Source: Zeus faber
Lineage: Eukaryota; Chordata; Actinopteri; Zeiformes; Zeidae
Length of the DNA: 64,000 nt
Direction: 5' to 3'
Assembly (NCBI GenBank): GCA_960531495.1
Contig: OY482846.1
Location: forward strand, 11,616,783-11,680,782
Shown: positions 6,142-62,314 of the stretch, piece by piece
Numbering within the stretch: the stretch's first letter is position 1
Layout of the letters: each line of letters opens with the position of its first letter
Position numbers and translations under genes: made by a program
Notes under the pieces: model-generated
Seen by the model: the letters and a program-made list of their open reading frames with translations, nothing else
Told to the model about the DNA's origin: nothing
Databases searched by the model: none

Positions 6142-7730
6142 TGCGTGTTTGCGTGCGTGCGTGCATGCGTGTGTATTAAAGAAAATCCCGTTTCAATCTC
6201 CAATCCAATAGGAGCTGTACAGCCAGGCGTACGAGGAGATCGGCGTGATGTTCGCCTCCATCCCCAACTTCTCAGACTTCTACACGGAGGAGAGCATCAA
6301 CAACGGAGGCATCGAATGTCTCCGGATCCTCAACGAAATCATCTCGGATTTCGACAGCGTGAGTCAGCGCAGGGGAATGTTACGTGTCTGTCGGGGGGAA
6401 AAGGGTGGTGGGGGGCATTTGAAGTCATTGTCCGAATCTGACCTTCTCCACCAGTTGCTGGACAAGGACGAGTTCCGTTTCATCACTAAGATCAAGACCA
6501 TCGGAAGCACGTACATGGCGGCTTCAGGCGTCACTCCAGAGAGCAACACCAACGGATACAGCAGTCGCAGGGTACAACACTGCAACACTTGGACTTAGTA
6601 ACTATTTGGTATAGTCACATTAGGGCAAATTATTTCATATCCTGTTCATCGTCTTTTAGTGTGAGGACATTAAGGCCTTGTTATACTGTGACTTCCACTT
6701 TCGTAGTTGGAATTATTGACTCGAGAAAAAAACAGGACCTAAAGTTTCTTACAGTATCTGAAAATTTGAGGCCATTTTTATTTGGAAAAAATGGATGTAT
6801 GTATAATATGTTATGGGGATTCATTTGTAATGATTTTGGAATCTTCACACAGCTGTCATACAATGAATTGAACATTTGAAGTTTTCTACATGTTTATAGT
6901 GTGATGGTGTGATATGGACAGACAATGTATAAAATACCAGACATTAATTATCTTTTTTTTTTCAAATCCCAAAACATTCTTCGCCTTCAATGCGCATCTC
7001 ATAAAACACCCCAACTACGCCCGTTTCTTCTCGCGATCAAAAATATGACGGTCACTTCGTATTGTGCTCCGCCAGGCCCAGGACCAGTCCCTGTCCGAGC
7101 GCTGGCAGCACTTGGCCGAGCTGGCAGACTTTGCCCTGGCCATGAAAGTCACGCTCACCAACCTCAACAAGCAGTCCTTCAACAACTTCATGCTTCGCAT
7201 CGGTCAGTGTATGTGTGTATTTGTGTTTGTCATGTACAAGTGTTAGGGTGTGTGTATGTTGATTGTTCAATGACCGCCCCCAGGCCTGAATAAGGGTGGG
7301 GTACTAGCTGGAGTGATTGGGGCTCGTAAACCTCACTACGACATCTGGGGAAACACAGTCAATGTGGCCAGCAGAATGGAGTCCACTGGGGTGATGGGGA
7401 ACATCCAGGTAACACACAGCCACACACACACACACACATTTATACAAAAGCTTGATTTCAACAACTCCATATATTGTTTTCTTGCAGTTATTTTTCTTTC
7501 TTCCTCCATCCTTCTCCACCTGATTTTTACAACACTGCCCCCAGGTGGTGGAGGACTGCTGCGACATACTGAAAGCGTACGGCTTCCGATTTGTTCGGAG
7601 AGGGCCCATCTTCGTGAAGGGCAAAGGGGAGCTGCTCACCTTTTTCATGAAGGGCAAAGACAAACCCAGCAGCAACGGTGTCGCTCCCGTCAAAAGCGCC
7701 CTTCCACACCAGGTGGTGGACCCCCCCTGA
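584..7730 (+). CDS. adcy3: adenylate cyclase type 3, 3' part (10 exons)
   Basis: This membrane adenylyl cyclase makes cAMP from ATP; type 3 is the olfactory and ciliary form. Exons: 584-717, 3482-3598, 4588-4859, 5348-5429, 5660-5818, 6212-6358, 6455-6571, 7076-7202, 7284-7408, 7545-7730. All junctions are GT-AG and keep frame, giving about 487 codons of a protein that is about 1,144 aa in human. The first three exons carry hydrophobic helices of the second membrane domain ([38 protein letters not shown]). Exon 5 onward is the C2 cyclase domain, with the signature [14 protein letters not shown], the purine-site lysine in [15 protein letters not shown], and the catalytic Asn and Arg in [12 protein letters not shown]. 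The end, LPHQVVDPP, resembles the type 3 C-terminus and separates it from other ADCY types. The first exon could instead start at 630 (a second AG), but the 584 start keeps residues that resemble mammalian ADCY3. The 5' half of the gene lies left of the window. Which teleost paralogue (a or b) is unknown. Confidence 0.95.
860..2433 (+). mobile_element. Tc1-like DNA transposon, near complete
   Basis: A 1,574 bp element begins CAGTGGGGCAAAAAAGTAT and ends with the inverted form ATACTTTTTTGCCCCACTG, flanked by TA on both sides (858-859 and 2434-2435). The terminal repeats are about 200 bp each (860 to about 1060, and about 2237 to 2433). Each has outer and inner repeated motifs, the IR/DR arrangement of fish Tc1 elements. 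It sits in the adcy3 intron between 717 and 3482, in the same orientation as the gene. Confidence 0.95.
1204..2206 (+). pseudogene. Tc1 transposase with one frameshift
   Basis: The first part (1204-1473) begins [20 protein letters not shown] and holds the paired-like helix-turn-helix DNA-binding region. The second part (from about 1466 to the stop at 2206) carries the DDE catalytic domain: first Asp in [10 protein letters not shown], second in [11 protein letters not shown], and Glu in [11 protein letters not shown]. The reading frame breaks once, near 1450-1466 in a GGGGGGAACCC stretch, consistent with a single-base insertion. The rest is uninterrupted for 246 codons, so this is a recently inactivated copy. 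Confidence 0.9.
2487..3379. repeat. TTAA-flanked non-autonomous element, family A copy 1
   Basis: The left end ATGGGACCTATTATG and the right end CATAATTGGTCCCC are inverted repeats of each other, each next to TTAA. Interior blocks such as TTTGGGTCTCTGATGGGAC and the AAACATGTTTTTGGGACCTCAGAGACC block recur at 41925-43015 and 59296-60205. TTAA target sites are known for piggyBac and Kolobok elements; no transposase frame remains here. Intron of adcy3. Confidence 0.75.
4068..4508. repeat. TTAA-flanked MITE, family B copy 1
   Basis: The left end TTAAAGTGGTAATCTGTACG and the right end (read in reverse) TTAAAGTGTAAATCCATAAG form terminal inverted repeats. The core, GTTGGTGGCGGGATCCGCC followed by ATGCACTGATCGGCATGTGC, recurs in the same or opposite orientation at 20195, 31395, 35200 and 54533. 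It ends 80 bp before the adcy3 exon at 4588. Confidence 0.75.
5523..5653. repeat. (CA)n microsatellite abutting an adcy3 3' splice site
   Basis: An interrupted CA/CG run becomes a pure (CA)n tract from about 5565 to 5653. The next bases are GTGTAG, and exon 5 of the visible adcy3 model starts at 5660. The usual polypyrimidine tract is therefore replaced by CA repeats. Confidence 0.95.
5829..5876. repeat. (TG)n microsatellite just after an adcy3 5' splice site
   Basis: About 23 TG units, with one GC interruption near 5861, begin about 10 bases after the donor at 5819. Complementary in sense to the CA tract upstream of the same exon. Confidence 0.95.
6089..6170. repeat. (TG)n microsatellite, interrupted
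   Basis: Pure TG run 6089-6136 followed by mixed CG/TG repeats, in the adcy3 intron between 5818 and 6212. Confidence 0.95.
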
Positions 7731-7908
7731 CCACTCGCGCAGCACAAGCGTAGCTAGATGGAGGCGACATGTTCTTCTCAGACATATATTTACATAGCTT
7801 GCACCACGTCATAAGAGCTACACAAACCAACATCATAACAAATGTAAAAATAGCTATATCAAATGTGAAACTAGACAAACCATAACACATTTCTCTAAAG
7901 TGAAAAAA

Positions 7909-9754: not shown

Positions 9755-10040
9755 TCCACCCGGAAGCATGGCAGTGTAGGAATTTCCGGTGACGTCAGAG
9801 TGTCAGGGCTCCATTAGGATCGCAGCTGTTCGGAGCACAACAACACAGGCAGACGGGGGCGACTGACGGAGCCTCCGCGGCGTCAGTGTCACTTCGTCCG
9901 TCGTCCAAACAAACAAACAGACAAATAAACAAACAAACGGACAAACAACACGGTCTCGAAAAAAAAAAACCTGGGAGCCCAAACCTCCTCCTCCTTTCCC
10001 ACCCGGAGCTCCGCCGGCTTCTAACCACGGCCGCTCTCGG
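9755..10040 (+). promoter_or_regulatory. wdr26 CpG-rich promoter and 5' leader
   Basis: Base composition changes abruptly from AT-rich to CpG-rich at about 9755. Visible sites are an ETS-type CCGGAAG at 9760-9766, a reverse ETS-type TTTCCGG at 9783-9789, and a full palindromic CRE at 9790-9797. There is no TATA box, as expected for a broadly expressed gene. The transcription start cannot be placed exactly. Confidence 0.65.
9790..9797. promoter_or_regulatory. palindromic CRE (TGACGTCA)
   Basis: A perfect CREB/ATF site, about 490 bases upstream of the wdr26 ATG and flanked by ETS-type motifs. A second perfect copy stands in the fez2 promoter at 32051. Confidence 0.6.
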
Positions 10041-10050
10041 TGAGGAAACT

Positions 10051-10281
10051 CTGGCCTCCGCTTCCTCCTCCTCCGACTCGGACACCGGCGGAGCGTCACC
10101 GCCCCCGCGGAAGAAACACCGAGCCTCGGCGGCGGAGGGAGCAGGAGAGCCCGGGGCTTCGACGGGCCTTTCCGGCGTTGTTTTGGGACTCGCTGCTTCT
10201 TCCCCTCCTCTTCCTCCGCACTCCCAAGCGACCTCCGCGATTCATTTCAACCGAAGTGTTGTCAACAACCTCAGCAGCGGC
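10051..10281 (+). other. possible non-AUG N-terminal extension of wdr26
   Basis: The wdr26 reading frame stays open upstream of the first ATG (10282) for more than 130 codons. Within it, a CTG at 10051 has A at -3 and G at +4, a favourable context. It would add 77 residues, including a Ser/Asp stretch and the basic patch PPPRKKHR, which resembles a nuclear localisation signal. CpG-rich DNA often has long open frames by chance, so this is only a candidate. Confidence 0.3.
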
Positions 10282-27782
<17,501 letters not shown>

Positions 27783-31648: not shown

Positions 31649-32019
31649 TACCAGCGTAGAGGAGTAATGTTTTTTTGTGCATATATTTTACAAGCACTGG
31701 AAAAATGACGCACACTTAGGCCTTTTAGCCGTGTTTCCATCTTAAGCAGTGGGGCAAAGTACTTGATGTCTCGCATGCATCATGCACAAACGGTGCAGTG
31801 GAATGAGGGGGCAACTCCAAAGGCTGTGCAAAAAACAAGTAGTTAGTGCTAAAAGCAATAATACTATCATCTCAATCAGAACAAAATATATACAACCGGA
31901 AAAAATATATGTATGTTAATGAATATGTGTGTGTTTTGTTATTGTACGGTTGTCTTTGAATGATGAATGTATTGCTCATGGTCAGTGCATTTAATAAACA
32001 TTGCAGCGATGATGTTTGT

Positions 32020-32178
32020 TTTGCGCTTTTGGGGGCGGGGCTTGTACTCGTGACGTCACCCCCCCCCCCCTTCCGCCAGGTCTCTCCGTTCGGCGACGCT
32101 CAGTCCGACCCGGAGCCGACAAGCAGAGCACCGTCCCGGGGAGGATTTAACCGACCACCGGAGCCTCTCGCGGCAGTC
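32020..32178 (+). promoter_or_regulatory. fez2 promoter region
   Basis: An abrupt CpG-rich stretch starts near 32030 with a GC box (GGGGGCGGGG, 32031-32040). A palindromic CRE follows at 32051-32058, then a C run. The ATG at 32179 is in a good context (CAGTCATGG). No TATA box. Confidence 0.65.
32051..32058. promoter_or_regulatory. palindromic CRE (TGACGTCA)
   Basis: A perfect CREB/ATF site 120 bases upstream of the fez2 ATG, 11 bases after a GC box. Same octamer as in the wdr26 promoter. Confidence 0.6.
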
Positions 32179-44358
<12,180 letters not shown>

Positions 44359-48214: not shown

Positions 48215-51200
48215 TCACAGGTTGGTGTCGGCGAACATGGTGTGCTCCTTCCTCACCGTGCTGAAGCCCTTTATGGTGTCTACAAATTCCTCGTCTTCCA
48301 TGAACTATAAGGAGGGCGGGATGCAAAGAATATAAGGTCTGTAAGTAACCTGTTATTTATAACCAGGTATTTTACATTGCATATTGGAAACTGTTTAATG
48401 TGGATTTGAGTATCACAATGGCAACTTTTATTGTGCACAGGGCGGGTGCGCCAAATGGATTATATAAGGGGGAAAAAAAGATTATTTATATATGTATATA
48501 TAAATATTACACACCAATTTAATAAATGTATCAGTCCCACAACCCCATGTGCATATCAAGTGGCCCCATGTGGGGCCACGACCCCAAGGTTGAGACTGTG
48601 TTTATGGTTATGGTTAAAGTGTGAGCAATTTGCTTCCATTAAGGAAGCAAGATTCCTTTTTTTCCTCACAAGTGAGAGGAACAGCTTGTGTTAAAACCAG
48701 GACCAGAGGCTACGGCCAGACCACATATCTGTAGACTATTTGCATATGTGCTCTTTAAAAATACAAATAGCGGTCACATTCCCTGCTGTTCCCTGACACC
48801 ATAAATACATTTTTAATTGGCTTTAGTACCAGACAGTATGGAGACCCTCTGGAAGTAAAGGTTTAGGGATGAGAGGTTTGGCTCTTTTTTGAGACTCTGT
48901 TCCTTTGATTTTCCTTCCAAAAGGCAGAATTATTGATCTAGGCGGAAGAATGCAAAGTGCGGATCTCATAAATCACATTAGCCTCTCTCTCTCAAAATAG
49001 TTTCTATGTGAATTTTAAGTAATTTTACTTCTGTCAAAATGATTTATGGTGGTGGAATGCAAAGTGTAAATCGTGTCACATTCAACATGAATTAAGCCAA
49101 ATGCTTTTGCCTTTTTTTCCCCACATGAATTCTCTTTTGCCGGATTGACTCGCTACGACCGAATTGTTTGCCAGTCACACACCCAAAGGTACCATTATTA
49201 CTACTCACTACGGATGACTCTCGCACATCCATTCCTACGAGTCTTTAGAATGATCGTTTTTCATGTGGTCTGCTCATACATTTTTGGGGTCTCACCATCC
49301 CGCTGTCGTGGCCTTGCACGCGGGGGTCCCACGCCTCGTCGTCCTCCGTCAGGGATTTCCCGTCCATCACCTGGCTGACGCTGCGGCGCAGGGAGTTCTG
49401 CAGGTGGAGCTGAGCCGAGCCGTAGACCGTGGACACACCGAGGGTCCCCAGGTCCCCGTCTGGAGGGGGCTCACATTTGATCTCCGCCACTTCCTGTGTG
49501 CAGAGAGCAAAAAAGGGAATAAAAAAAGTTGGTACAGGGAGTGTGCGATACGTATTTCTTTGTAAATGTGTGTGTGTGTTGATAGGGCGTTTGGTTTTAC
49601 CTCGACGTGCATAGTGAAGCTCTTGAGTGTCACGCTGTTGGAGAAGCTTGTGGTGTTGGGCACGGTGTCAAACTGGAAAAGGAGGAGAGCGGATGTTCTG
49701 AAGTCATGCGCACACACACACACACACACACTGATCAGACTGCTAAACATCCTTTAAAGTGGTAATCCGTCAAAGGATTTTGTTTAAAAAATATTTTACT
49801 TTATTTTTAGCTGCCATTTTAGAAAAAAAAACAACAGCGATTAACCCTCCTCAGGAGAGGATCTATAGTGGTACAGATAATGGGCGGGCCTCCTCTTACC
49901 AGTACGGAGCGGCTGGGGGGGTAAGCAGAGATGCGGTTCTTCTTCTGCAGGGGAAGGGACACCAGCGGGGGCCTCTCCCTGGTGAACGGGGGTCTGTTTA
50001 GGGCCTTAATTGGGAAGAACGGGGGTAATAATTCCATTATAAAAAGAAAAACTACAACCTGAACTCAAAAGCACAAATTAATTCAGTCTTTCAAAATCTT
50101 CAATTGCTGTGACTTATATTTTTAACAATGAAAATAATAAACTTTATCTATTAAACAATACCCTGAAAAAGGCTTTATTCAAGTTTGTTCTACTACTAAC
50201 ACATCAGTCAATAATAATACAATTAAAACTACTATTAAACTGCTACTAAAAGGGACTTAGTTGTTGATAATTTTGGGTCATTATTTATTTTCATCGAACC
50301 ACTTTGTCTTTTAAATTTTAGCTAAAACCTTAAACTGAAATAACCTAAATCTCAGTGATGATGTTTGGACCAGGGGCAATGGTGTCCCCGCCTTTCATGG
50401 GGCTATCATTTCAAAAGGGCAAAAAATAAGATCAATACTTAACGCAAACAAGAGCCCTGCCGGCTGGTACCTTGTGTAGGACGAGCACCAACACGATGGC
50501 CAGGAGCGCCAGGGCCACAGCCGCCATCAGCACAATGAACCACAGCTCCCGGTAGAAGAGCGGCTGGTCCCCCTGGCCCGCCTCGGCCCGTTCCCCACCC
50601 CCGACCAGCCCTCCCTCCGGGGCAGTGGGCCGCGGTGCATCTGCAGTGGAGAGACAGAAACCCCAAATATCCAAGGCCTGAATAACACTTTGGTATGATC
50701 CCTTTAGTTTGCATTAGTCTCCTATTAACTTTGCTTGTGGTCAGTTGAACATGGTGACTGAGATCGAATTCCCTTAAAAACATCTAAACATGTTTCCATT
50801 CGTCTTTTGATACAACTGTTGTGGTGTGGGGATAGTCTAACGGGCAACAGGTAAAACTGCCATTCTCACACACTCAGGAACGGAGCCCTGTCATGTCATG
50901 TCTATCTGCTCCTGGCTAATTCCAAATGGCCCACTCTCTACAATAAACTGGTGTCTACATCCCTGTCTTCTGTGTCTCTGTGCTGGAGGTCCCTGAAAAC
51001 ACCACTTGGGCAGCGTGTGGTCGGAGAAACTGACACAGTGGCGCCCGAACAGGGACTCTCTGGCACGGGGGCAGGGACACAGAGGGGCCGACGACTCCAT
51101 GGAGCCACCAGTGGATCAACAGGCAGCCCCAGCACCAACCCTCTCCCGACTGGTAGCAGCAGCACCCAGGGAAGCAGAAGCAGATGCAGCAACCACCATG

Positions 51201-53427
51201 GGTAACTGTCTGCAGCTAGCTCCTCCACCCAACAGCCACCGTCAGGACCATCCAGCAGCCCAGCAGCCAGGCCACGCCTCCAAGCAGCCCTCGCAACAGC
51301 CAAGTCCGGCTATGCCTTCACCAGCCAGCACAGCAGCCCAAGGCCCCATGCTCCAGTAGGGAGGAGGGGGCAGACTGTCATCGCCCTGGGGGAAAGAGGC
51401 TGGTCGACCATGCTGCTACCAGGGGACCATAATTATTATTTTTTGTACATTTGTTTAAGGTATGGAAACCCTGTTTCATGGTCCGGTGTTTTTATTATTT
51501 CATGTATAGGAACCCTGTATCAGAGTCTGCTTTAAACACTTTTTTTCATTTTTGTTTTCTGCTTGGTGGTGGCGGGGGAATAGGCTTTGGCCAGGTATTC
51601 TCCCTGGTCTCAGTTAGGTGTTGGGTCTGTGGTGTGAGGATGGTATGGTTGAGTAGCCACACCTGACCTGGATCTAAGTGATTGAGTCAGAGTAGCTGCG
51701 TACCTGTTGCTCGTTGGTTGGTCGAACGATCAGCAGGTAAAAACTCCATCCCCCACACTTCCTCAGGAGAGGAGCCCTGTCATGACATCTTCTATATACT
51801 GCTGGCTAATTCCAACTGGCCAACGCTCTACAATAAACTGGTGTCTACAACATCGTCGTCTGTCTCTGTGCCGAAAGGGCCCTGAAAACGTCACTTGGGT
51901 GTGGTAGGCGAAACTGCCACACTGTTTATATAACCAACCAGCCACAACATTAAAACCACTGACTGGTGAAGTGAAGAACATTGCTCATCTCATTCCAATG
52001 GCATCTGTCAAGAGGTGGGATATATTAGGCAGCAGGTGAACAGTCAGTTCTTGAAGTTGATGTGTTGGAAGCAGGAAAAATGGGCAAGCGTAAGGATCTG
52101 AGCGACTTTGACAAGGGACAAATTGTGATGACTCGGCAACTGGGTCAGAGCATCTCCAAAACAGCAGGTCTTGTGGGGTGTTCCTGGTATGCAGTGGTTA
52201 GTACCTACCAAAAGTGGTCCAAGGAAGGACAACCGGCGACAGTCATGGGCTCATTGATGTGCGTAAGGAGCGAAGTCTAACCCGTCTGGTCCAATCCTAC
52301 AGAAGAGCTACTGTTCCAAAAATAACTGACAAAGTTAATGCTGCTATGATAGAAAGATGTCAGAACACACAATGCGTCACAGCTTGCTGCGTACGGGGCT
52401 GCAGACTGGTCAGTGCCCATGCTGACCACTGTCCACCGCCGAAAGCGCCTACAATGGGCACGTGAGCATCAGACCTCGACCATGGAGCAATAGAAGTACT
52501 CCTGGTCTGATGAATCATGTTTTCTTCTACATTATGTGGATGGCCGGGATCCAATCGAGCATCTGTGGGATGTGCTGGAACAGCAAGCCAGATCCATGGG
52601 GCCCCACCTCGCAACTTACGGGACTTAAAGATCTGCTGATAAGGTCTTGGTGCCAGATACCACAGGACACCTTCAGAGGTCTTGTGGAGTCCATTGCCTC
52701 GACGGGTCAGAGCTGTTTTGGAGGCACAAGGGGGACCTACACAATATTAGTGGTTATTAGTGGAGGTTTAAATGTTGTGGCTGATCAGTGTATCCTCCAA
52801 TATAAATACTCTTGTTTAGCCTGTTATTGGAAAGATATCCAATTCCAGTCTCTAAGCATCCTTATCTGAATCTATTGTCTCGATTATCAAAGAAACACCT
52901 ATTTCCCCATTTTCACACCATTCAGACCTCTGCAGGTCTCACGTGGCGTGAGATGAGGGCACACCTTGATGCTTTTCCGAGAAAGAAAGGGGATCGGGCA
53001 GTCGGCATCTCGCAGAGCACGTGCGCGGCGATAAAGCTGAAATTGGACACGGTGTTCCTCGCATGGCCTGGTTTCTCTGTCGGGGAAAGAGCCGCTACGC
53101 CTAAGGACGCCTCCATTGTTTCCCTCTTATACACAGTAAAGAGCATTCCCCCCATAGTTGCCGTCTTAATGCTCCGATGCTGCAAGGGTATAAATGAAAA
53201 GTAGATATGGGAGTAGATATGGATTTAGGTTTTATCGACAACTAGTTAAGAGCAACCTGAGCCAAAGAGAAAGGGAAGGTGGAAGGCCAAGGTGTGTGTG
53301 TGTGTGTGTGTGTGTGGCCGGCCCGTGGAACTCACCAGCACTGGTCTCCGTGGTGGGTCCTGCCGTGGGGGCGCTGGCTACCCCCCCGCTGTGCGATGCA
53401 TCGATCGGGACGGAGGAAGGATCACAC
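48215..53427 (-). CDS. ush2a: usherin C-terminal fragment: stalk, transmembrane segment and cytoplasmic tail
   Basis: Human usherin has about 5,200 residues, mostly laminin and fibronectin type III modules, then one membrane helix and a tail that binds PDZ proteins of the Usher complex. Minus-strand exons here, in order: 53336-53427, 50471-50640, 49900-50004, 49601-49672, 49296-49493, 48215-48304. All have AG/GT borders and matching phases. The second carries [12 protein letters not shown] and the rest of a hydrophobic helix, close to usherin [12 protein letters not shown]. The third has [15 protein letters not shown]. The fifth has [14 protein letters not shown] and GHDSGM. The last ends [11 protein letters not shown], keeping a class I PDZ ligand (T-N-L). 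The exon at 53336 (residues [15 protein letters not shown]..) is assigned by phase and position only. No exon of the ectodomain is visible between it and esrrg. The gene is either a true short paralogue, a remnant, or a rearrangement. Confidence 0.85.
49754..49812 (+). repeat. TTAA MITE family B, terminal fragment
   Basis: TTAAAGTGGTAATCCGTCAA is the family terminus, followed by the T-rich TTTAGCTGCCATTTT subterminal part; the rest is missing. It lies between two ush2a-fragment exons. Confidence 0.6.
51039..51056 (+). other. primer binding site, tRNA-Lys type
   Basis: TGGCGCCCGAACAGGGAC is the complement of the 3' end of tRNA-Lys(UUU). It stands one base after the end of the left long terminal repeat, the normal place for minus-strand priming. 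Confidence 0.85.
51102..51356 (+). pseudogene. residual open frame inside the LTR element
   Basis: A frame rich in Pro, Gln, Ala and Ser runs from MEPPVDQQ to a stop at about 51359 and contains no recognisable zinc knuckle or protease. It may be a leftover of a structural-gene region or simply open by chance. Confidence 0.3.
51935..52785 (+). mobile_element. Tc1-like transposon with internal deletion
   Basis: The left end CCAGCCACAACATTAAAACC and the right end, in reverse TCAGCCACAACATTTAAACC, are inverted repeats. The transposase begins [20 protein letters not shown] at 52081 and breaks soon after. Near 52500-52565 a [11 protein letters not shown] block runs straight into a [12 protein letters not shown] block, so the middle of the catalytic domain is deleted. 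It abuts the LTR element. Confidence 0.85.
52860..53270. other. unique-looking intron sequence between mobile elements and stalk exon
   Basis: About 400 bases, GC-balanced and of high complexity, with no repeat signature. It contains CACGTGG and GCACGTGC (E-box-like) words. The minus-strand open frame here (52922-53185) resembles no known family. Could be a conserved regulatory element or nothing. Confidence 0.35.
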
Positions 53428-53628
53428 CTGTTTCCCCCCGATCAGTCTTTCACACCCGATTAAAACGAAACAAGAAAAAAAACGACGTCCACGGAGGCCC
53501 CCGGGTAGAAGCCCTCAAAGGTGTGGGCGTGGGTTCCTGGGAGCCATGCCCTTCACTCCGCCTTGTGATGATGTGCTCCGGGTCCTTTGCGTGGGGCTTT
53601 GGGCTCGTTGCTCTGGGCTCTCTCTCAC

Positions 53629-53672
53629 CCCCTCGGTTTCGCATCAACCTTTGCTGCCCCTGCCACCGCCAT
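53629..53672 (-). CDS. ush2a: candidate first coding exon of the short ush2a
   Basis: On the minus strand an ATG at 53672-53670 in the context GTTGCCATGG opens 14 codons (MAVAGAAKVDAKPR) and two further bases before a GGGG|GTGAGAG donor. Joined to the exon at 53427 it restores frame exactly, so the seven exons total 771 nt (256 residues plus stop). No signal peptide is present; the membrane helix (about residues 79-100) would have to serve as the anchor. The acceptor at 53428 has a poor pyrimidine tract. Model is speculative. Confidence 0.3.
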
Positions 53673-54238
53673 GGCAACAGCCTTGTGTTTAAGGTTTCAG
53701 TTTACCGATGAAGCGTGGTCCGAGAGCCATGTCAGTACTCTGATACCGTGTGTGTGTGTGTGTGTGTGTGGTTCAGTATCTGATAGTAGTACATTATATA
53801 GTATAGTCTCCTTGGATGCCTTTTTCAACTGTCAAGTATTTGTAGGACAAGAGATCATTTAGAATATAATATAATAGTTGTGAAAAGTTCCACGTTTGGA
53901 AACAGTGGCCATGGCATTGGAGCTGTCCAAGAGCCCCCTTGTTCTTCTCATTTGAAGGAATTTTATCCTCAGATCACACACACGCACACACACGCTATTT
54001 TTACCCATAGACGACAGTTCGTTCCAAAAACATTGAACAATAAATGTCCTTTTCCTTTATTTAAACAAATGTCTAAAAACAATATTCTATTTTTTCTCAT
54101 TAGAGTAACAGAATTTAGTATTGCTAACAATCTGTAACCGATGATTTTGTAGGGAAACATATTCCAAATCCAGACACCGACTGTTCTTTTTTCTGCCACT
54201 AGAGGACGGCACAGCGCAACGTATTGAATATTATCATC

Positions 54239-54270
<32 letters not shown>

Positions 54271-54532
54271 TATAGTAATAGTAATAATGATAATAATAAT
54301 ATGATCTGACACGTGAAGAAGAAGAAGTGTTAAGACAAAATAAAATCTGGATTTGAAAGATTACAGACCTACGGTTACTATTGCGCCGTTATGAGAGAGA
54401 TTTCTCATTTATAGATTTTGATTGATTATAACTACAAGTTACAACTGGTCAATACTTTTTCTTTTCTAAAATGAGGACAGCATTATTCCCATCCGTGATA
54501 AAAAATAAAAATAAATAACAATAAATACAATT

Positions 54533-54770
54533 TTAAAGTGGTAATCCGTAAGATTATTTTGTTCAAATATCCCATATTTGATACCTTTTTTTTTAGCTGA
54601 CACTGTTAAGAAAGAGATATTCATTGTGTTTGTACAATGCATGCGCTCCTCTGTTTGCTGTTCACATTGTTGGTGGCGGGGTCCGCCTTTCCCACCGAGA
54701 ATGGAAATGCAGGAAGTTGTTTCTCTTCCCGGCTGACGTGTCAGGGAGGTATTGACCAGTTTCAGGGTTG
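54533..54770 (+). repeat. TTAA MITE family B copy 5, 3' truncated
   Basis: TTAAAGTGGTAATCCGTAAG starts the copy; CCCATATTTGATACC, TAGCTGACACTG and GTTGGTGGCGGGGTCCGCC follow in the same order as in the copy at 4068. The right terminus was not found. Confidence 0.7.
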
Positions 54771-56040
54771 ATGATGAAACCCTTCAAAGTCAAAATTTAA
54801 ACAAGTTGACCTTGACCCCCCCCAAAGCCTCCGCTTTACAGTCGCTCGTACGTTGACATTAAATCTGTGTTTTGAGGTCCCCAGTGACTGGCAATTGGTC
54901 AATCAATTAATCCGCGAAGCTTTTCTTCAAGCCATCAGCACATCGACTCTTTAACAGCGACTTTATCGGCAGCAGCTCCGTGGAGACAAGGGGATGTTCT
55001 AACGCTCTCTCGGGAAATATCTGAACTATCCCACCAATGTACTATCCAGTACGCCGACGCTCAGAATCGCCAATTGGAAATTGCCCCACCATTTTCTTCT
55101 ATGTACAGTATGTAGGGCTTCATTCGGGATCGGTAATGCTAATGCTAATGCTAATAGCAGCTTAAAACTGGATTTGGTGAAATTCAAGGACGTGACGATC
55201 GATGTAAACAAATTCCGACCCCCCCCCCCCCCCCACCGCACTTTCTTCCAAAAGAATCATTTTACATCCGAGGTTACATCAGGTGCGGAGAGTCATTTCA
55301 TTTTTCATTTTTGAAAACCTTTTCCACGGACCATCAGAAAGTAAACAGTCCGCTGAGGAGCACACGTAGCGGTGGAGGGGGAGGCGCCTCAAAGTTCCCC
55401 ATGAGAGTGAGATCCATTCTGATCAACTCAAAACAAAGGTGATTATTTCATAAAACCCTCGATGACGTCGCCGACCCCAAACCCCATGAAGGATTTTATC
55501 CGTCACCACCCCCACCCCCCACGCCAGACGACCTGTCGCCCCCACCACACGTTAACCAACAGCGCGCGTCTGATTTACTCCTCCCCGGTGGAACGCCCTG
55601 ATCAGCATTCACACCCTTCCCGCCTTTCTCTCCCTTCATCCCTTCTTTCCTTTCTTTCCCTCCGTTCTCCTCCCCCATGATTCGGGACAATGCTTTTTTT
55701 TTTTTTTTTTTTTTTTTTTTATTGAGGAAGTGATCTCACCCCTGAGTGACAGAATCAGCCTTTTTTTACAGCCCGACATCTCCACCAGGCCTCATCCATC
55801 ACGGGGGCGGGAGACACGGGACACACACTAAGTCATTTAAGAAGAGGGACGGACGGATGGATGGAGGGAGGGAGGGTGGGATGGAGGGTGGGATGGAATA
55901 TATCTCAACATCACTGACAGAGGATGGGATGAAAGATAAAAAGAAGATTAAAGATTGTATTTCCGAACTCTTTCTGCTTGTAAGAACAGGTGAATAGACG
56001 GAGTGTTGATAGAGAAGAGGGGATGAGGGAGGAGGGAATA

Positions 56041-56094
<54 letters not shown>

Positions 56095-56620
56095 ATCTTT
56101 GTTCCTTATGTTTTTCTGTGATTCCCTCGTGGACCTCGCCCCCACACACTGATGTCTCCACTTGTCATCTTCCTCTTCTATCCCCCTCTCTCTCTCTCCT
56201 TTTTGCTCCCCCCTTCATCTTCCTCTTCCCCCGCCCTCCATCCCAACATTGGCCCAACATTGTCCATCAGCTCTCCATCTCTTCTCCTCCTTCTCCTTTC
56301 CCGCACCTCTTCCCCTCCCCTTCTTATCTTTTCATCCTCTCCTCTTCCCCACTTCTTCTCTCCCATGCCTCTTCTCCTCCTCTCATGTCTTCTCTTCAGA
56401 CGCTCTTCTTCCCTTCCGCTTCCTCTCTCCCTCTCTTATCCTTTCCTCTCCTCTTCCTGACCTCCCCTCTTCTTCCTCCACTCGCCTATTCCTCACCTCC
56501 TCTTCCCTCCTCTCCTATTCCTCTCCTCCCCTCTTCTTCTTCGCCTCTTCCTCAGCCCCCCTTCTTCCTCTCCTCTCCTCTTCCTCACCTCTCCCTCTCA
56601 GCCCTCCCCAGTCCTCAACC
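56041..56620. repeat. (CT)n microsatellite and long polypyrimidine tract
   Basis: A (CT)n run with one interruption (56041-56091) is followed, from about 56150 to 56620, by an almost continuous C/T-rich strand made of TCTTCCTC-type words. All frames give Ser/Leu/Pro-rich peptides without similarity to known proteins; not a gene. Confidence 0.9.
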
Positions 56621-58299
56621 GAGCAACATATTTATATCACGTTCTCTGATTCTTTTATGAACAACATCAGTGACTTCGTTTGACACAGTAACTGTTTGTG
56701 CCTGATCTGAAACTGCAGAGAATCAACGATGACATCACAACATCCACCATCACATCGTCCATCTTTGACTCACAAACTGAAAAGAATCACTGAGGATTCA
56801 TTTGAAGTCCAAGGCAAAAGGAAGGCATTCCCCACGATTTGTAAAAAAAATTCAACAATGGAAACTAGCTCTTGTGTTGCAAGATCAAAATTGTGAGGCT
56901 GCACTTAGTCATCAAACTGATCAATTCCAGCAGAATAGCAGCTCAAGGTTCACACTGAGTGAGAACGAGCAGCGATGAAAGGTCTCGACCCTTTTCTTTC
57001 AAAGATTTGTTTCTTCGCGAGCCACTGAGGCACGTCGGGAGTAAAGAGTCATTTACGCTTTTCCCGCTCTCGCTTCGTTTGGTTCAGTTGGTGAAACGCC
57101 CGGCGAGCGAGGGACGACTTCCTGAACCATGAACGAGTCAGAGGCGTCGGTTCGGCTCCGAGTTGGACATGGAATTCTCCCAAGAATCATTGTGAATGCA
57201 ATGTATTTGTGTGAGCCACACACGTACACACACACACACACACACACACACATGCATTACACACGATAATGTTCACAATATGGTGTCACCAAATTGAATA
57301 CACTGTCGTTCAAAATAAAGAAGTGTCACATGGTCTCTTTGACGACTGAGCGTGTCAGTTAACCAGTACTATTTGCATATTTTAGAAACACCTGTCTGAG
57401 TTACAATGCCGCAATTCAAAGCGATACCAACTTCGACCGAGAGAAGAGGAACCTTTCCTTTCCATAACCGCCGTTCAAAGTGATATTAACAGAGCGAGAG
57501 CATGCACTGAAGACTCACCTTTACCTGACGAGCCTGATCCAAAAACAAGAAAATTGCCCAACCCACTTTCCACCCCTGAAGCAACGTTCTCTCTCGTGAT
57601 ATATTTGCTTCTCAAATATGCAAATATATTACTTATAACGTCAAAACCACAACTACACAAGTACATTAAATTCACAATGAATAGACGCAAACAATCGATG
57701 GGATAATTAATATGAAAAATGAATACAAAAACCCGACGATAAAAAAAAATTATTTGTTTAGCAATGTTAGACTTGTCCATAGTCGACCAAATTCTGATCT
57801 GAACTGTTTATTTTAACGTATCTCTCGTACTGTAGATATAACTTCATTGTTTCCCTCGGTTGAAGTTCTACATTTTAGCGGAGCCAACGATGCAAAATAC
57901 AACAGTAAGATCTGAACAATACGCCAAGCCACTACAAAAAGTTCAATGGACAGTACAGAAAATACACAATACCACCTCTAGTTTATTAGATCAAGTTACA
58001 TACTGCGCAGTGCAGAGTTGGTGTCGGTAAACTGCATATTACTCATCCATTCATCCCTTCATCATTCATTCAGATCTAAAGTTGAATTCCATTTGGCCGA
58101 TGAGAAGATCGGTGCACGTTCACCCACTGATCAGTTTTCGCTGGAGCCACGGAGCCATTTAATTACATAGTAGTTGATAAGAAATTGGTACATTTCAAGT
58201 ACAATTATTTACCCATTAGAGTATGGGTGAAGTATTTTTTTTGTATGTTTATTTATAGATTTTCTTCTCTTGTTCAAATAAGGACGCTCCACCGAGATG

Positions 58300-60871
58300 A
58301 CGATTTTTAAACTGGGTATCATCTTTATTGCCCAAGAATCCACCTGAGAATGTAATCACTGCACGTCTCATTTAAACAAGGCTTAGTTTGCATCTTTGAA
58401 CACCGTCACTTTTGGCATAGAACACTATGTACAGCAGAGAGAATATACGCTCAAAACCTTCTCCATGACATATTGCTAGGTCACATACATATCTGTCACA
58501 AAAATATACACATGGTAGTGATTCCGTACCTTTGCACCAAGAACAAAAACTGGAAGATTTTATTTAAATAGACGATTATTTTCAGCGTATGTCCTTCCCT
58601 TCCACGTTTAATTCCCTTCATGTAAAAGACATTTTTAGACCTCTTCATACCGAACGCACAGATTGACAGAGAGCCACCACCAAGTTCCCCAGGCTTTTAG
58701 AGCTAAAAGAAAGTTAGTGCACCAGTCTTACCTTACACATAGAGATACACAATAAAATGGACATTAAGCCTCTTGAATTTTGGGTATATGGCAGCCATTT
58801 TACATTGTTAGTTATATGTATGGTTCTACGCAACTCTACATTAAGTAGACACATAGTCATTGTTATTCAAGTACTTGATCCCACTTATAACTAGGCTGTC
58901 TCTCACGTCATGACATGGTTTTGATATTAGTGCTACATGTGGAGCAAAGTAACTAGTACAAAAAGGAAATCTTTTACAATTACATAGTTTAAAAATGTTT
59001 ACAAATTGACAGAATGTAATTGCACGTACTATTCTATTCTTCATAGTTGAAAAATTAGGAAATAAAAAAAATGCAAAAAAAAAGAATAAACCAAATAAAA
59101 ATAAGCCAGCACTAAATAAATATTGTTTTTATACACAGTTCTATAACAGCATCATGAGATATAGACTCAGACTTCATACATTTATTTTCCCTGAAATAGT
59201 CTATGGGCGATTCGTTATTTTAAATTAGATATCAGCCGAATACAGCTATAACTTCACATGTATTATTTACCATTATAAGAGATGATCGCAACATATTAAA
59301 GGGGACCTATTATGAAAAACTCACTTTTTCAGTGCTTGTGTTCATATATCTGGGTCCCTAATGGGAACACACCACACAAGCTGTGAAATAAGTTACAAGT
59401 TATGAGATGTTAAGCTTTTTGTGAGATGCCTTTGCCAGAAAACTTGTGATTCAACAAGCCGTTCAGATTTGTGTCTTCCTCCTACGTCACTTGGAGACTC
59501 AATAGAATGAGACCGCCCCCCATCTGAGTAACTCCACCCACCGCTTGAGAAATACTGGACCTGCTAGCATTATGTCGAAGCTCAGAGATAAGCATGGGAA
59601 CTGCAATGCTTTTGGCTGCACGGACCAGCACAAATCTTTTAAAAGAGGAATTAATACCAACTGTCTGTGATAAAACTGCAGACAAGGGAAATGTAAGTAT
59701 TTAAAAAATAATTGTGCTATGTGTTCCTTTTGCCATTTTTGAGGCCTGCCTGTCAACCCTCCCGTTTTTCTCGGGATTCTCCTGTATTTTACACTTCTCT
59801 CACTCTGTCCCGTTGAAATATTGTCCAGTTAATCTCCCATTTGGTGGTAATGTCGACGGTAGGCTACGCGGGTACAATCCACTGCGCATTTCTCCAAACA
59901 AAACCAATAAAAACACTGTGTTTTTATTGTAGATGTATTTATTTTATGTATTTTATTTAATTTCTCTCAGTTTCCTAATAGAATGAAAGCAACAAAAAGC
60001 CCTGTGCGTAAAGCCACAAACAGTTCCGGAGTGGCGCGTGGGGAGCAGCAGCTCATTTGCATTTAAAGCGACACACACACTGACTGAACCAGCCCCGTCG
60101 TGAACAGGAGGGTTATAGAGGCATGTTTGAATGGCTAGAATGCATAATCTGAGTGGTATTTGCGGCACAAACCTTCAAAGACATGTTTTGGGGACCTCAG
60201 AGACGCATCATAATGTAAATATAGTTTTGCGATGGAGATCATGAATGCTTTCTGTTAGCGTCTTACAGACCGTGTTACATAATTGTGGATATTTGCTGGT
60301 ATTCTTTTAAAATGAGTCTTCACTCTTTGGCAAGACTTACAGCTCTGTACACTTATTTTAATATCAAATAAAAAGGACCCCTCTAGAAGCACTAGAATGA
60401 AGGTTAACAGGCTTCAAGATGGTTTCTCAATAGAAAAATCCATCAGGATCTTCAAGTATCAGGTGGTCTTTTGACATAGCAAGTTTTACTTTAGGCATCT
60501 AAACTTGGAGAGATCGTGAGGTTTGTCGTCCTCCAACTCGTTCCATGTTAAGAACACGTCTCACGATAAAGACAAAAGACAATTTCTCATCTTCACTTGA
60601 GGCCTTCAGACTCTGAGTCTTGCTCCGTTTACTTCTGTTTTCATTCGCAATAGAAGCAACTTAAAGGAGTGAGGTTCTAAAACTTGACTGCTAGCTTGCC
60701 TGTTCACTCAACACATGTGCGTTCCTGGAGATTCAGATTCAGAACTTGAATGTCCAACAGAGGCCAAAAACAGATGAAGAAGAAAGAGCGTCTCCACAAC
60801 CCCCCGTCCCGCCCTCTCGGACCCTGTTCTGAGCCGTGGACAGGGACAGGGGCAATGGCCGCCCGTCAGGG
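58300..60871 (-). other. probable esrrg 3' UTR
   Basis: AT-rich, microsatellite-poor sequence directly after the esrrg stop. On the minus strand an AATAAA occurs at 58324-58329 (TTTATT on plus), a plausible poly(A) signal. The only clear repeat inside is a family A element (59296-60205). UTR extent is inferred, not shown. Confidence 0.4.
59296..60205. repeat. TTAA-flanked element, family A copy 3
   Basis: It begins TTAAAGGGGACCTATTATG and shares successive blocks with copies 1 and 2 (GGACCTGCTAGCATTA, GACCAGCACAAATCTTTTAA, GACATGTTTTGGGGACCTCA). The right terminus is lost after GACCTCAGAGACG. A short frame near 59595-59670 (GNCNAFGCTDQHKSFKR) has the C-x5-C..H look of a zinc-binding domain start. 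Confidence 0.75.
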
Positions 60872-61720
60872 TCAGGCCTTGGCTTCCAGCAGTTCCAGGA
60901 ACAGTTTGTGCATGGGCACGCGGCCGTCCTGCTTGATGCTGCAGAAGTGCTGCACGGCTCGAGCCGCCGTCTGACGGAGGAGGGGGAGCGTCATGATCAG
61001 CTTGCCGGCCCGACGCTGGTCCTCCGGGTGCTGGGCGGCCTCGTAGTCCTGCAGGGCCCCATGGAGCACGTCCTGCAGCCTCTGGACGGCCTCTGCGTCC
61101 TCAATCTGCATGGAGTCTGTGGAGAGTGGAACGGTGTCATTATTCAAGCCGCGCGGAGGAGGGGAAAACACAGATGGGAAGGCAGGTTGATAGAAGGAGC
61201 AACGGAGATTTTTGTGAGTTCAATTTATCACCCTATTATAAGGCTGGACAACCATGTGCCATGAAATCAGAAACCCTGCGTACCCTTGGTGCTCCTTGGC
61301 ACATGGCTGCCCAACCCTGGCCCATTGTAATAACCATGCCTTAGGAACAAAATTAAGCATGGAAATACCGTGAGGTCTATGTGTGCAGATATTTGGATGC
61401 CGACCGACACGATTACACAGATTGGAATGCAGGGAATCTGTCTGACACACCTGAGTTAGCGAGAGCAATGGCTTTGAGCACCACAAACTCCTCTCTCTCC
61501 AGTCCCATGGCTTTGTATTTCTTCACCAGTTGCAGGATGGCGTTGTTGAGGTCCAGAAGGCCGGCTAATTTCGACTGCTCCTCGTCCATGACGTAGTCCT
61601 GCGCGTACACCAGCTGGTCCTCCAAGGCCAGCGAGCGGAATACCACGCGCAGGATCAGGATCTCCATCCAGCCGCTCTGCAGGAGACTCATCTGGTCTGC
61701 CAGTGAGAGGGAGGCGAAGC
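60872..61720 (-). CDS. esrrg: estrogen-related receptor gamma, C-terminal part (last two exons)
   Basis: ERR-gamma is an orphan nuclear receptor that binds TCAAGGTCA sites and drives mitochondrial and metabolic genes. Minus-strand exons: 61451-61720 and 60872-61116 (stop at 60872-60874), joined in frame (G|AC). They encode the ligand-binding domain from [15 protein letters not shown] (helix 3) through [17 protein letters not shown] and [17 protein letters not shown] to the AF-2 helix [11 protein letters not shown]. The [15 protein letters not shown] and [10 protein letters not shown] segments fit ERR-gamma better than ERR-beta, as does linkage to ush2a. Several otherwise constant positions differ ([11 protein letters not shown]; a final Ala), so this is a somewhat diverged copy, perhaps one of two teleost paralogues. 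Upstream exons (DNA-binding domain and the rest) lie beyond the window. Confidence 0.93.
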
Positions 61721-62314
61721 CTGGAGAGAGGGTACAGAGAGAAAGTCACAGACAGTACAAGCATTCACAGGTCACAGAACCAGCGCTCAGACAACACACT
61801 TTAAAATGTCCACACAAACGCGTGACTTTCCGCAGCTCATTCCAGTAGTCAGGTCCAAGGCCCGACATGTCTTCACCAATTCAGTGTCGGGAAGAAGAAC
61901 CCTAAGGGCCGTAACGGCACGGAGATATGCAGTTTCCATCTCGATGATCATGACGACCATCCCACTTTTCCATGTAACTCACAATTAAGTAAAATACTTT
62001 GCCAGAACACTGTTGTTTTTTCTAAGGGTGATTGCTTTCCGTATGATGGCCGGTGATTGCAAGGTCGTTTTTATTCACCGACTGATCAATAAGGAGGCTC
62101 CAGATTGGTGCTCAGTCCTCGGACGGGAGACATTCACTGATGAGCTGCCTCCCCACGCAGGTATGTGCACAACAAATAGAAGTTGTGGACGGCGCCACTG
62201 AATAGGTTCCCATTTTAATTAGCTTTCCAGGGATACACCCTTTTCGCCTATTACCTCACACAGGGGTATGATGAAAACCACTCAAGTGGCCACGTACATT
62301 AAAGCGCTAGTGCG

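What the first reader, a model, noticed from the sequence alone, without database searches (positions are those of the whole stretch)
48215..60871. A usherin gene reduced to its membrane helix and cytoplasmic tail
Seen: six consecutive minus-strand exons with intact frames, phases and splice sites encode the usherin helix and tail, and the esrrg 3' end follows about 7.4 kb further upstream on the same strand. Known: human USH2A and ESRRG are neighbours in this orientation, but USH2A has a very large ectodomain encoded by dozens of exons. No laminin or fibronectin exon was seen in 53.4-60.9 kb. Inference: after gene or genome duplication one copy lost the ectodomain but kept the tail, giving a short membrane protein that could bind Usher PDZ partners. 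Alternatives: the ectodomain exons were moved by inversion, the assembly is broken, or this is a young relic.
Basis: partly seen in the sequence, partly recalled or inferred. Interest (0 to 1): 0.82.

Follow-up and report, generated by a model that had tools for sequence, protein, structure and literature searches.

The report
Tail-only usherin gene in teleosts
Teleost fish carry, besides the giant Usher-syndrome gene ush2a, a second small copy that keeps only its membrane anchor and inner tail, in the form that mammals are reported to reserve for the inner ear; it looks conserved and working, and should be reckoned with when fish are used to model Usher syndrome.

Summary
Five minus-strand exons (50,640-48,215) and a less certain sixth (53,427-53,336) encode the usherin membrane helix and tail; ERR-gamma (esrrg) exons lie 7.4 kb upstream. 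No laminin or fibronectin exon was found in the window. The same assembly holds an essentially full-length ush2a on another contig (~192 kb), so this is a second gene, neither displaced nor broken. It is not lineage-specific: 119 listed relatives of 134-307 aa, the named ones all teleost. 38 of these and the window form one clade (100/99) beside teleost full-length usherin. This fits the teleost genome duplication best, but an older split is not excluded (AU p 0.08). New here: exon 4 is homologous to an optional 24-residue usherin exon, reported as inner-ear-restricted; 117 of 119 short proteins include it. The C-terminus is nearly always DTNL; the last exon is more conserved than in long usherin (93% against 69%), the helix and exon 5 less. 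Most likely it is a functional, ectodomain-free membrane ligand of Usher PDZ scaffolds, perhaps in hair cells. Expression, start codon and binding are untested. Databases list it as "usherin"; my searches found no paper describing it.

The parts
53336..53427 (-). candidate exon 1: last stretch before the helix ([14 protein letters not shown]), probably a relic of the last fibronectin-III exon; 5' limit and start codon unresolved
   Evidence: direct DNA likeness to this genome's own long ush2a exon not significant
50471..50640 (-). exon 2: glycine-rich stub and transmembrane helix [29 protein letters not shown] (starts in phase 1)
49900..50004 (-). exon 3: juxtamembrane tail [15 protein letters not shown]..
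49601..49672 (-). exon 4: 24 codons [24 protein letters not shown], homologue of the optional usherin exon 71
   Evidence: passages
49296..49493 (-). exon 5: ..[22 protein letters not shown]
48215..48304 (-). exon 6: ..[19 protein letters not shown] and stop; class I PDZ-ligand end
60872..61219 (-). stop-to-stop frame holding the last coding exon of esrrg (ERR-gamma)
61413..61745 (-). stop-to-stop frame holding the preceding esrrg ligand-binding-domain exon

Best explanation
This is a functional second usherin gene, a teleost paralogue of ush2a that lost the ~5000-residue ectodomain but kept the last exons. SHOWN: an essentially full-length ush2a in the same genome on another contig; a clade of short proteins from many teleosts; conserved tail, above all its end; near-universal inclusion of the optional 24-residue tail exon in the deposited models; near-invariant C-terminus DTNL. 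INFERRED: that it is expressed; origin in the teleost (3R) genome duplication; a single-pass protein with a short outside stub and the tail inside the cell; binding of its C-terminus to PDZ scaffolds of the USH2/ankle-link complex (whirlin PDZ1 first, PDZD7 next). Most likely action: in hair cells (perhaps photoreceptors) it sits in the membrane as a link-free usherin that occupies or tethers the scaffold and so tunes how much full-length usherin is held, stabilised or degraded, without entering the extracellular links.
For: Own genome: ush2a exon by exon on C3 (13 matches; 63-block chain over 192 kb, from residue 355 to the end of the Maylandia protein, covering 3848 of 5588 residues, with 35 kb of the fetched 209 kb reading N); it has its own tail ending DTHL and its own exon-71 homologue. 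Eleven species appear in both lists; for the six with a contig on both sides the listed contig lengths differ (the lists do not say whether both come from one assembly). Tree: 39 short rows one clade 100/99, with 22 long teleost rows 96/90, gar, bowfin, paddlefish and bichir outside. Exon 6: mean pairwise identity 0.93 short (39 rows) against 0.69 long teleost (22 rows), last 15 residues 0.98 against 0.85. Over 45 matched species pairs the short tail is on average not faster than the long tail (0.85 against 1.00 changes per column; shorter in 31). Optional exon in 117 of 119 (109 by pattern, 8 of the 10 misses by inspection). USH2A C-terminal 10-mer binds whirlin PDZ1 with Kd 23-28 uM (PMC10238197, passages).
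Against: No transcript or protein data could be examined. The window has no in-frame ATG before the methionine inside the helix; 48 to 54 relatives' models (two patterns) also start there, so the N-terminus and perhaps the topology are uncertain. Helix and exon 5 are less conserved than in long teleost usherin (0.65/0.77 and 0.56/0.70). Paralogue NG86 dN 0.33, dS 0.79 is only mildly below 1. AU tests do not reject an older duplication (p 0.083 and 0.078). The second esrrg copy was not located: not found in the readable part of C3:14,620,501-14,829,500, and the whole-genome query did not complete. The inner-ear role rests on exon homology alone.
Confidence: 0.75

Rival explanations
1. The ectodomain exons were moved by inversion or lost from the assembly, so this is the 3' end of an ordinary ush2a.
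For: The neighbour esrrg matches the ordinary locus (USH2A flanks ERR-gamma in jawed vertebrates: PMC7617844, passage).
Against: An essentially complete ush2a with its own helix, tail and DTHL end lies on C3; the same short gene is listed in many teleosts.
Confidence: 0.02
2. A decaying relic in this species, not translated.
For: No in-frame ATG in exon 1; frame of the 5' part of exon 1 shifted against P0003 and P0006; alanine in place of threonine just before DTNL.
Against: Five exons open with AG/GT borders; nearest rows are the gadiform copies, up to 78% identity, and its end branch is not among the long ones; 48-54 relatives' models likewise start only in the helix.
Confidence: 0.06
3. The duplication is older than teleosts (before gar and bowfin, or before ray-finned fishes), the short copy being lost in the others.
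For: AU p 0.083 and 0.078, not rejected; long-teleost clade support only 88/42.
Against: Free tree joins short and long teleost rows 96/90; every named short protein listed is teleost except Polypterus P0113, which carries ectodomain sequence like gar's before the helix and falls outside. Only the best 120 of 166 hits were listed.
Confidence: 0.15
4. Translation starts at the methionine inside the helix, giving a ~165-residue protein with no outside part at all.
For: First in-frame ATG of the window; 48-54 models start there; M at this place in 63 of 63 short proteins that show it, L in 7 of 7 acanthomorph long usherins.
Against: M is also the usual residue in other long usherins (89 of 92 non-teleost, 21 of 28 teleost); the ELWFIV stretch before it is kept in the window, and its LWF core in 63 models that reach it, which untranslated leader need not be.
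Confidence: 0.25

Closest known systems
USH2A isoform b (full-length usherin), including the cochlear exon-71 form
   Same: Helix, tail exons, 24-residue optional exon, C-terminal PDZ ligand, neighbour esrrg
   Different: No LamNT, LamG, EGF-Lam or FN3 ectodomain; separate gene; optional exon nearly always included; C-terminus DTNL, against DTHL, DTPL or DTQL in 115 of 120 long ones
Short 'usherin' / Si:ch211-57i17.5 models in fish databases
   Same: Same gene by sequence and tree; 134-307 aa, DTNL end
   Different: Listed as database models; described in no paper that my searches found
USH2A isoform a (short usherin, said to be eutherian)
   Same: A short usherin product
   Different: Isoform a is the N-terminal, predicted secreted part of the same gene (PMC3781144, passages); the present gene is the opposite end

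Membership tests
Full-length usherin (USH2A) | Laminin and fibronectin-III ectodomain | tested here: not met
   No ectodomain match in the window with 10 long usherins, best E 0.22
Full-length usherin (USH2A) | Usherin helix and tail with class I PDZ-ligand end | tested here: met
Teleost short usherin clade | Monophyly with the short proteins, apart from long usherin | tested here: met
   39 rows (38 of 119 relatives plus the window), 100/99; window with Gadus, Lota, Muraenolepis 96/90
Teleost short usherin clade | C-terminus DTNL | tested here: met
   window; 116 of 120 listed hits, one of them the bichir P0113, which is not of this clade
Teleost short usherin clade | 24-residue exon-71 homologue included | tested here: met
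   window exon 4; 117 of 119 relatives (109 by pattern, 8 of 10 misses by inspection)
3R ohnologue pair with ush2a | Second copy on another chromosome of the same species | tested here: met
   contigs C2 and C3 of G000; C3 is 40 Mb
3R ohnologue pair with ush2a | Duplication after the gar/bowfin split | tested here: inconclusive
   free tree yes (96/90), AU for the older split p 0.083
3R ohnologue pair with ush2a | Paired synteny, an esrrg copy beside each | tested here: inconclusive
   esrrg beside the short gene; none found in the 209 kb fetched around the long one, 35 kb of it N; whole-genome query unanswered
USH2/ankle-link complex member | Binding to whirlin, PDZD7 or harmonin PDZ domains | not testable with these tools
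   inferred from the C-terminus and PMC10238197 (passages)

The most novel reading that the evidence does not exclude
After the teleost genome duplication usherin was split by body part: the long copy keeps the extracellular links, while a miniature, ectodomain-free copy fixed the inner-ear tail exon and acts from inside the membrane on the hair-cell Usher scaffold. Usherin would then have a tail function separable from its links, testable in zebrafish.
Probability: 0.35. Interest if true: 0.82.

Novelty: new variant of a known kind. Interest (0 to 1): 0.62.

Why it matters
Zebrafish ush2a mutants are used as Usher models (passages), and the medaka paper reports a single orthologue (PMC3781144, passage). 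A second, tail-only usherin with the hearing-type exon could buffer or modify hearing phenotypes and cross-react with tail antibodies (inference). It also gives a natural experiment: the usherin tail kept in many teleost lineages without its ectodomain, which makes separable testing of link and scaffold functions, and of exon 71, possible.

Tried and rejected
Pfam was run on 137 of 177 listed open frames, those between 0.5 and 45.7 kb. An upstream first exon (MPLQ-like, as in P0001 and P0002) was looked for with short-protein tblastn and by eye; none was found. Direct DNA alignment of exon 1 with this genome's last FN3 exon: 1306 of 2000 shuffles score as high, so it is no evidence; in the same call exon 3 and exon 4 DNA were reached by 5 and 8 of 300 shuffles, helix exon, exon 5 and exon 6 by none. 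The case for exon 1 rests on the protein chain, where P0011 failed throughout. Rfam at gathering thresholds: no match. PDB search with the tail: nothing below E 1. AlphaFold of the short family: one confident helix, the rest low confidence (mean pLDDT 55). Papers naming the zebrafish-style gene: none; 'usherin-like' fish, ush2a ohnolog, ush2a paralog teleost, usherin teleost duplication: no description in the listings. The counts of exon 71 in long proteins (22 of 120 by one pattern) come from cluster representatives and are not a measure of splicing.
Full report
THE OBSERVATION. The minus strand of 48.2-50.6 kb holds five exons with AG/GT borders and open frames that spell the usherin helix and cytoplasmic tail and end in ..[13 protein letters not shown] (exon 3 runs 50004-49900). 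Of 120 short database proteins 56 to 120 match each of these exons in place. A sixth, upstream exon at 53427-53336 is in frame, but only 4 of 120 match it, and alone it beats shuffles clearly for three of ten relatives tested. It has no in-frame ATG, and its 5' part is out of frame with P0003 and P0006. The frames at 61,745-60,872 are ERR-gamma, 7.4 kb upstream on the same strand. Ten long usherins searched against the window gave no ectodomain match (best E 0.22), while all ten tails were found.

A SECOND ush2a EXISTS. The window is C2:11616783-11680782 of an 803-Mb assembly of 153 contigs. A 440-residue end of Polymixia usherin hits another contig, C3, exon by exon. In 209 kb fetched from there, 35 kb of it N, 63 collinear blocks over 14,636,733-14,828,696 cover 3848 of 5588 residues of Maylandia usherin, from residue 355 to the end; the first 354 residues were not found. 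Its tail has the corresponding exons, an extra optional exon (RPYPELCCKH..), an exon-71 homologue (FETVADCVEIGNVALKSYTVYTE) and a DTHL end. Intron phases agree at four of the five borders; the helix/exon-3 border differs by one base (my reading). Displacement and misassembly are therefore excluded as the cause.

MANY TELEOSTS HAVE IT. A search with the spliced product gave 166 proteins; 120 are listed. All named ones are teleosts, from Anguilla and Arapaima to pufferfish, except Polypterus P0113, which carries ectodomain sequence like gar's before its helix and looks like a cut long protein. P0003 is unnamed. Through gar usherin 231 long usherins were found, 120 listed. Eleven species occur in both lists: Maylandia, Siganus, Scatophagus, Astyanax, Sinocyclocheilus grahami, Triplophysa, Trichomycterus, Arapaima, Denticeps, Paramormyrops and Cyprinus carpio. 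Where both rows give a contig (six species) the listed contig lengths differ; whether both come from one assembly is not stated.

AGE. A tree of 77 tails (38 of the 119 short relatives plus the window, 22 of 28 listed long teleost rows, 4 non-teleost ray-fins, 12 others) puts all short rows in one clade (100/99) beside the long teleost rows (88/42), both together 96/90, with gar, bowfin, paddlefish and bichir outside. Within the short clade the window joins Gadus, Lota and Muraenolepis (96/90). This fits the teleost duplication. Against it: holding long teleost rows with gar and bowfin, or with all non-teleost ray-fins, is not rejected (AU p 0.083, 0.078); placing the short genes outside all bony vertebrates is (0.018). 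The partner esrrg was not found, as the genome query did not complete.

THE TAIL IS OF THE INNER-EAR TYPE. Exon 4 has 24 codons. Long usherins of a shark, bowfin, birds and mammals hold a homologous 24-residue stretch at the same place, in some models only (11-17 of 24 residues identical to the window in five examples). [quoted passage not shown] passages; the first cites Adato 2005, not seen). Equating the two rests on length and position. In the short family 117 of 119 proteins include it (109 by pattern, 8 of the 10 misses by inspection); the two without are P0032 (partial) and P0094. The C-terminus is DTNL in 116 of 120 listed hits (bichir included), against DTHL 90, DTPL 13, DTQL 12 and DTNL 2 of 120 long ones.

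CONSTRAINT. Mean pairwise identity, short against long teleost: exon 6 0.93/0.69; last 15 residues 0.98/0.85; exon 4 0.72/0.39; exon 3 0.71/0.61; but helix 0.65/0.77 and exon 5 0.56/0.70. The exon 4 figure for long rows includes rows without that exon, so it is not a fair comparison. Over 45 matched species pairs the short tail is closer in 31. Between the two copies of this genome NG86 gives dN 0.33 and dS 0.79 (helix exon, exons 5 and 6).

ORIGIN OF THE FIRST EXON. The stub before the helix in Arapaima (SASTPTTEDNTDTSTDPVKPTPGG) aligns with the end of the ectodomain of gar (SISTPIIKYNTATGIGPVDPTAGG); 0 of 1000 shuffles score as high. Eight of twelve short-long pairs gave 0 of 1000; all four with Umbra P0011 failed. 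In this genome's long gene that stretch is the exon before the helix exon. So the break probably fell inside the last fibronectin exon (inference).

START AND TOPOLOGY. In the window the first in-frame ATG lies inside the helix. By two patterns 48 and 54 of the models start there too. That residue is M in 63 of 63 short proteins that show it and L in 7 of 7 acanthomorph long ones, but M in most other long ones. P0001 and P0002 share an MPLQ start that points to an upstream spliced exon. The charge pattern (acidic stub, basic LHKALN..RER) favours tail-inside (inference). AlphaFold of P0003 with 31 relatives shows one confident helix, the rest of low confidence.

MECHANISM. Usherin's C-terminal 10-mer binds whirlin PDZ1 (Kd 23-28 uM), and whirlin brings the ligase WDSUB1 to usherin and controls its stability (PMC10238197; abstract and passages). 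A tail without ectodomain could occupy or tether the same scaffold and tune usherin turnover in hair cells. This is the mechanism I think most likely; no step of it was tested.

KNOWN OR NEW. The gene is in databases as 'usherin' or Si:ch211-57i17.5. Searches of the held library gave no description of it that I saw, from listings and the passages read. The medaka paper states a single orthologue (PMC3781144, abstract and passages), although a short medaka protein is listed (P0116). Zebrafish ush2a papers were seen only in passages (PMC10258241, PMC7372554, PMC7828047). Most subscription-journal papers are not held.

Mended: the tree holds 38 of the 119 relatives; helix-start counts are 48 and 54; exon 1 was tested alone and is weaker than first written; all ten tails were found.

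Noticed in passing
window 6212-7750 (+): Adenylyl/guanylyl cyclase catalytic-domain exons; by recall resembling adcy3.
   Followed up: partly
window 9793-27162 (+): WD40-repeat exons at 23.5-24.0 and 26.7-27.2 kb; by recall the frame at 9793-10551 resembles the start of wdr26.
   Followed up: partly
window 31960-32487 (+): FEZ-family exon: the nearest Pfam-recognised gene found downstream of the short usherin.
   Followed up: no
window 35872-36483 (+): Tc1-like transposase piece.
   Followed up: no
window 51900-52830: Intron 1 holds a Tc1-like element by eye (only a weak helix-turn-helix match, E 0.0023, below the Pfam cut-off).
   Followed up: no
window 50873-50980 and 51762-51870: Direct repeats of 80 nt (84% identical) and 27 nt (89%), spaced about 890 nt, in intron 1.
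   Followed up: no
L008 5968-6039 (C3:14826468-14826539): The long ush2a of this fish has a further 24-codon tail exon (RPYPELCCKH..) beside its exon-71 homologue; listed long acanthomorph proteins carry one or the other.
   Followed up: partly
long acanthomorph usherins P0221, P0228, P0233, P0235, P0236, P0239, P0241: The otherwise usual methionine in the membrane helix is leucine in all seven.
   Followed up: no
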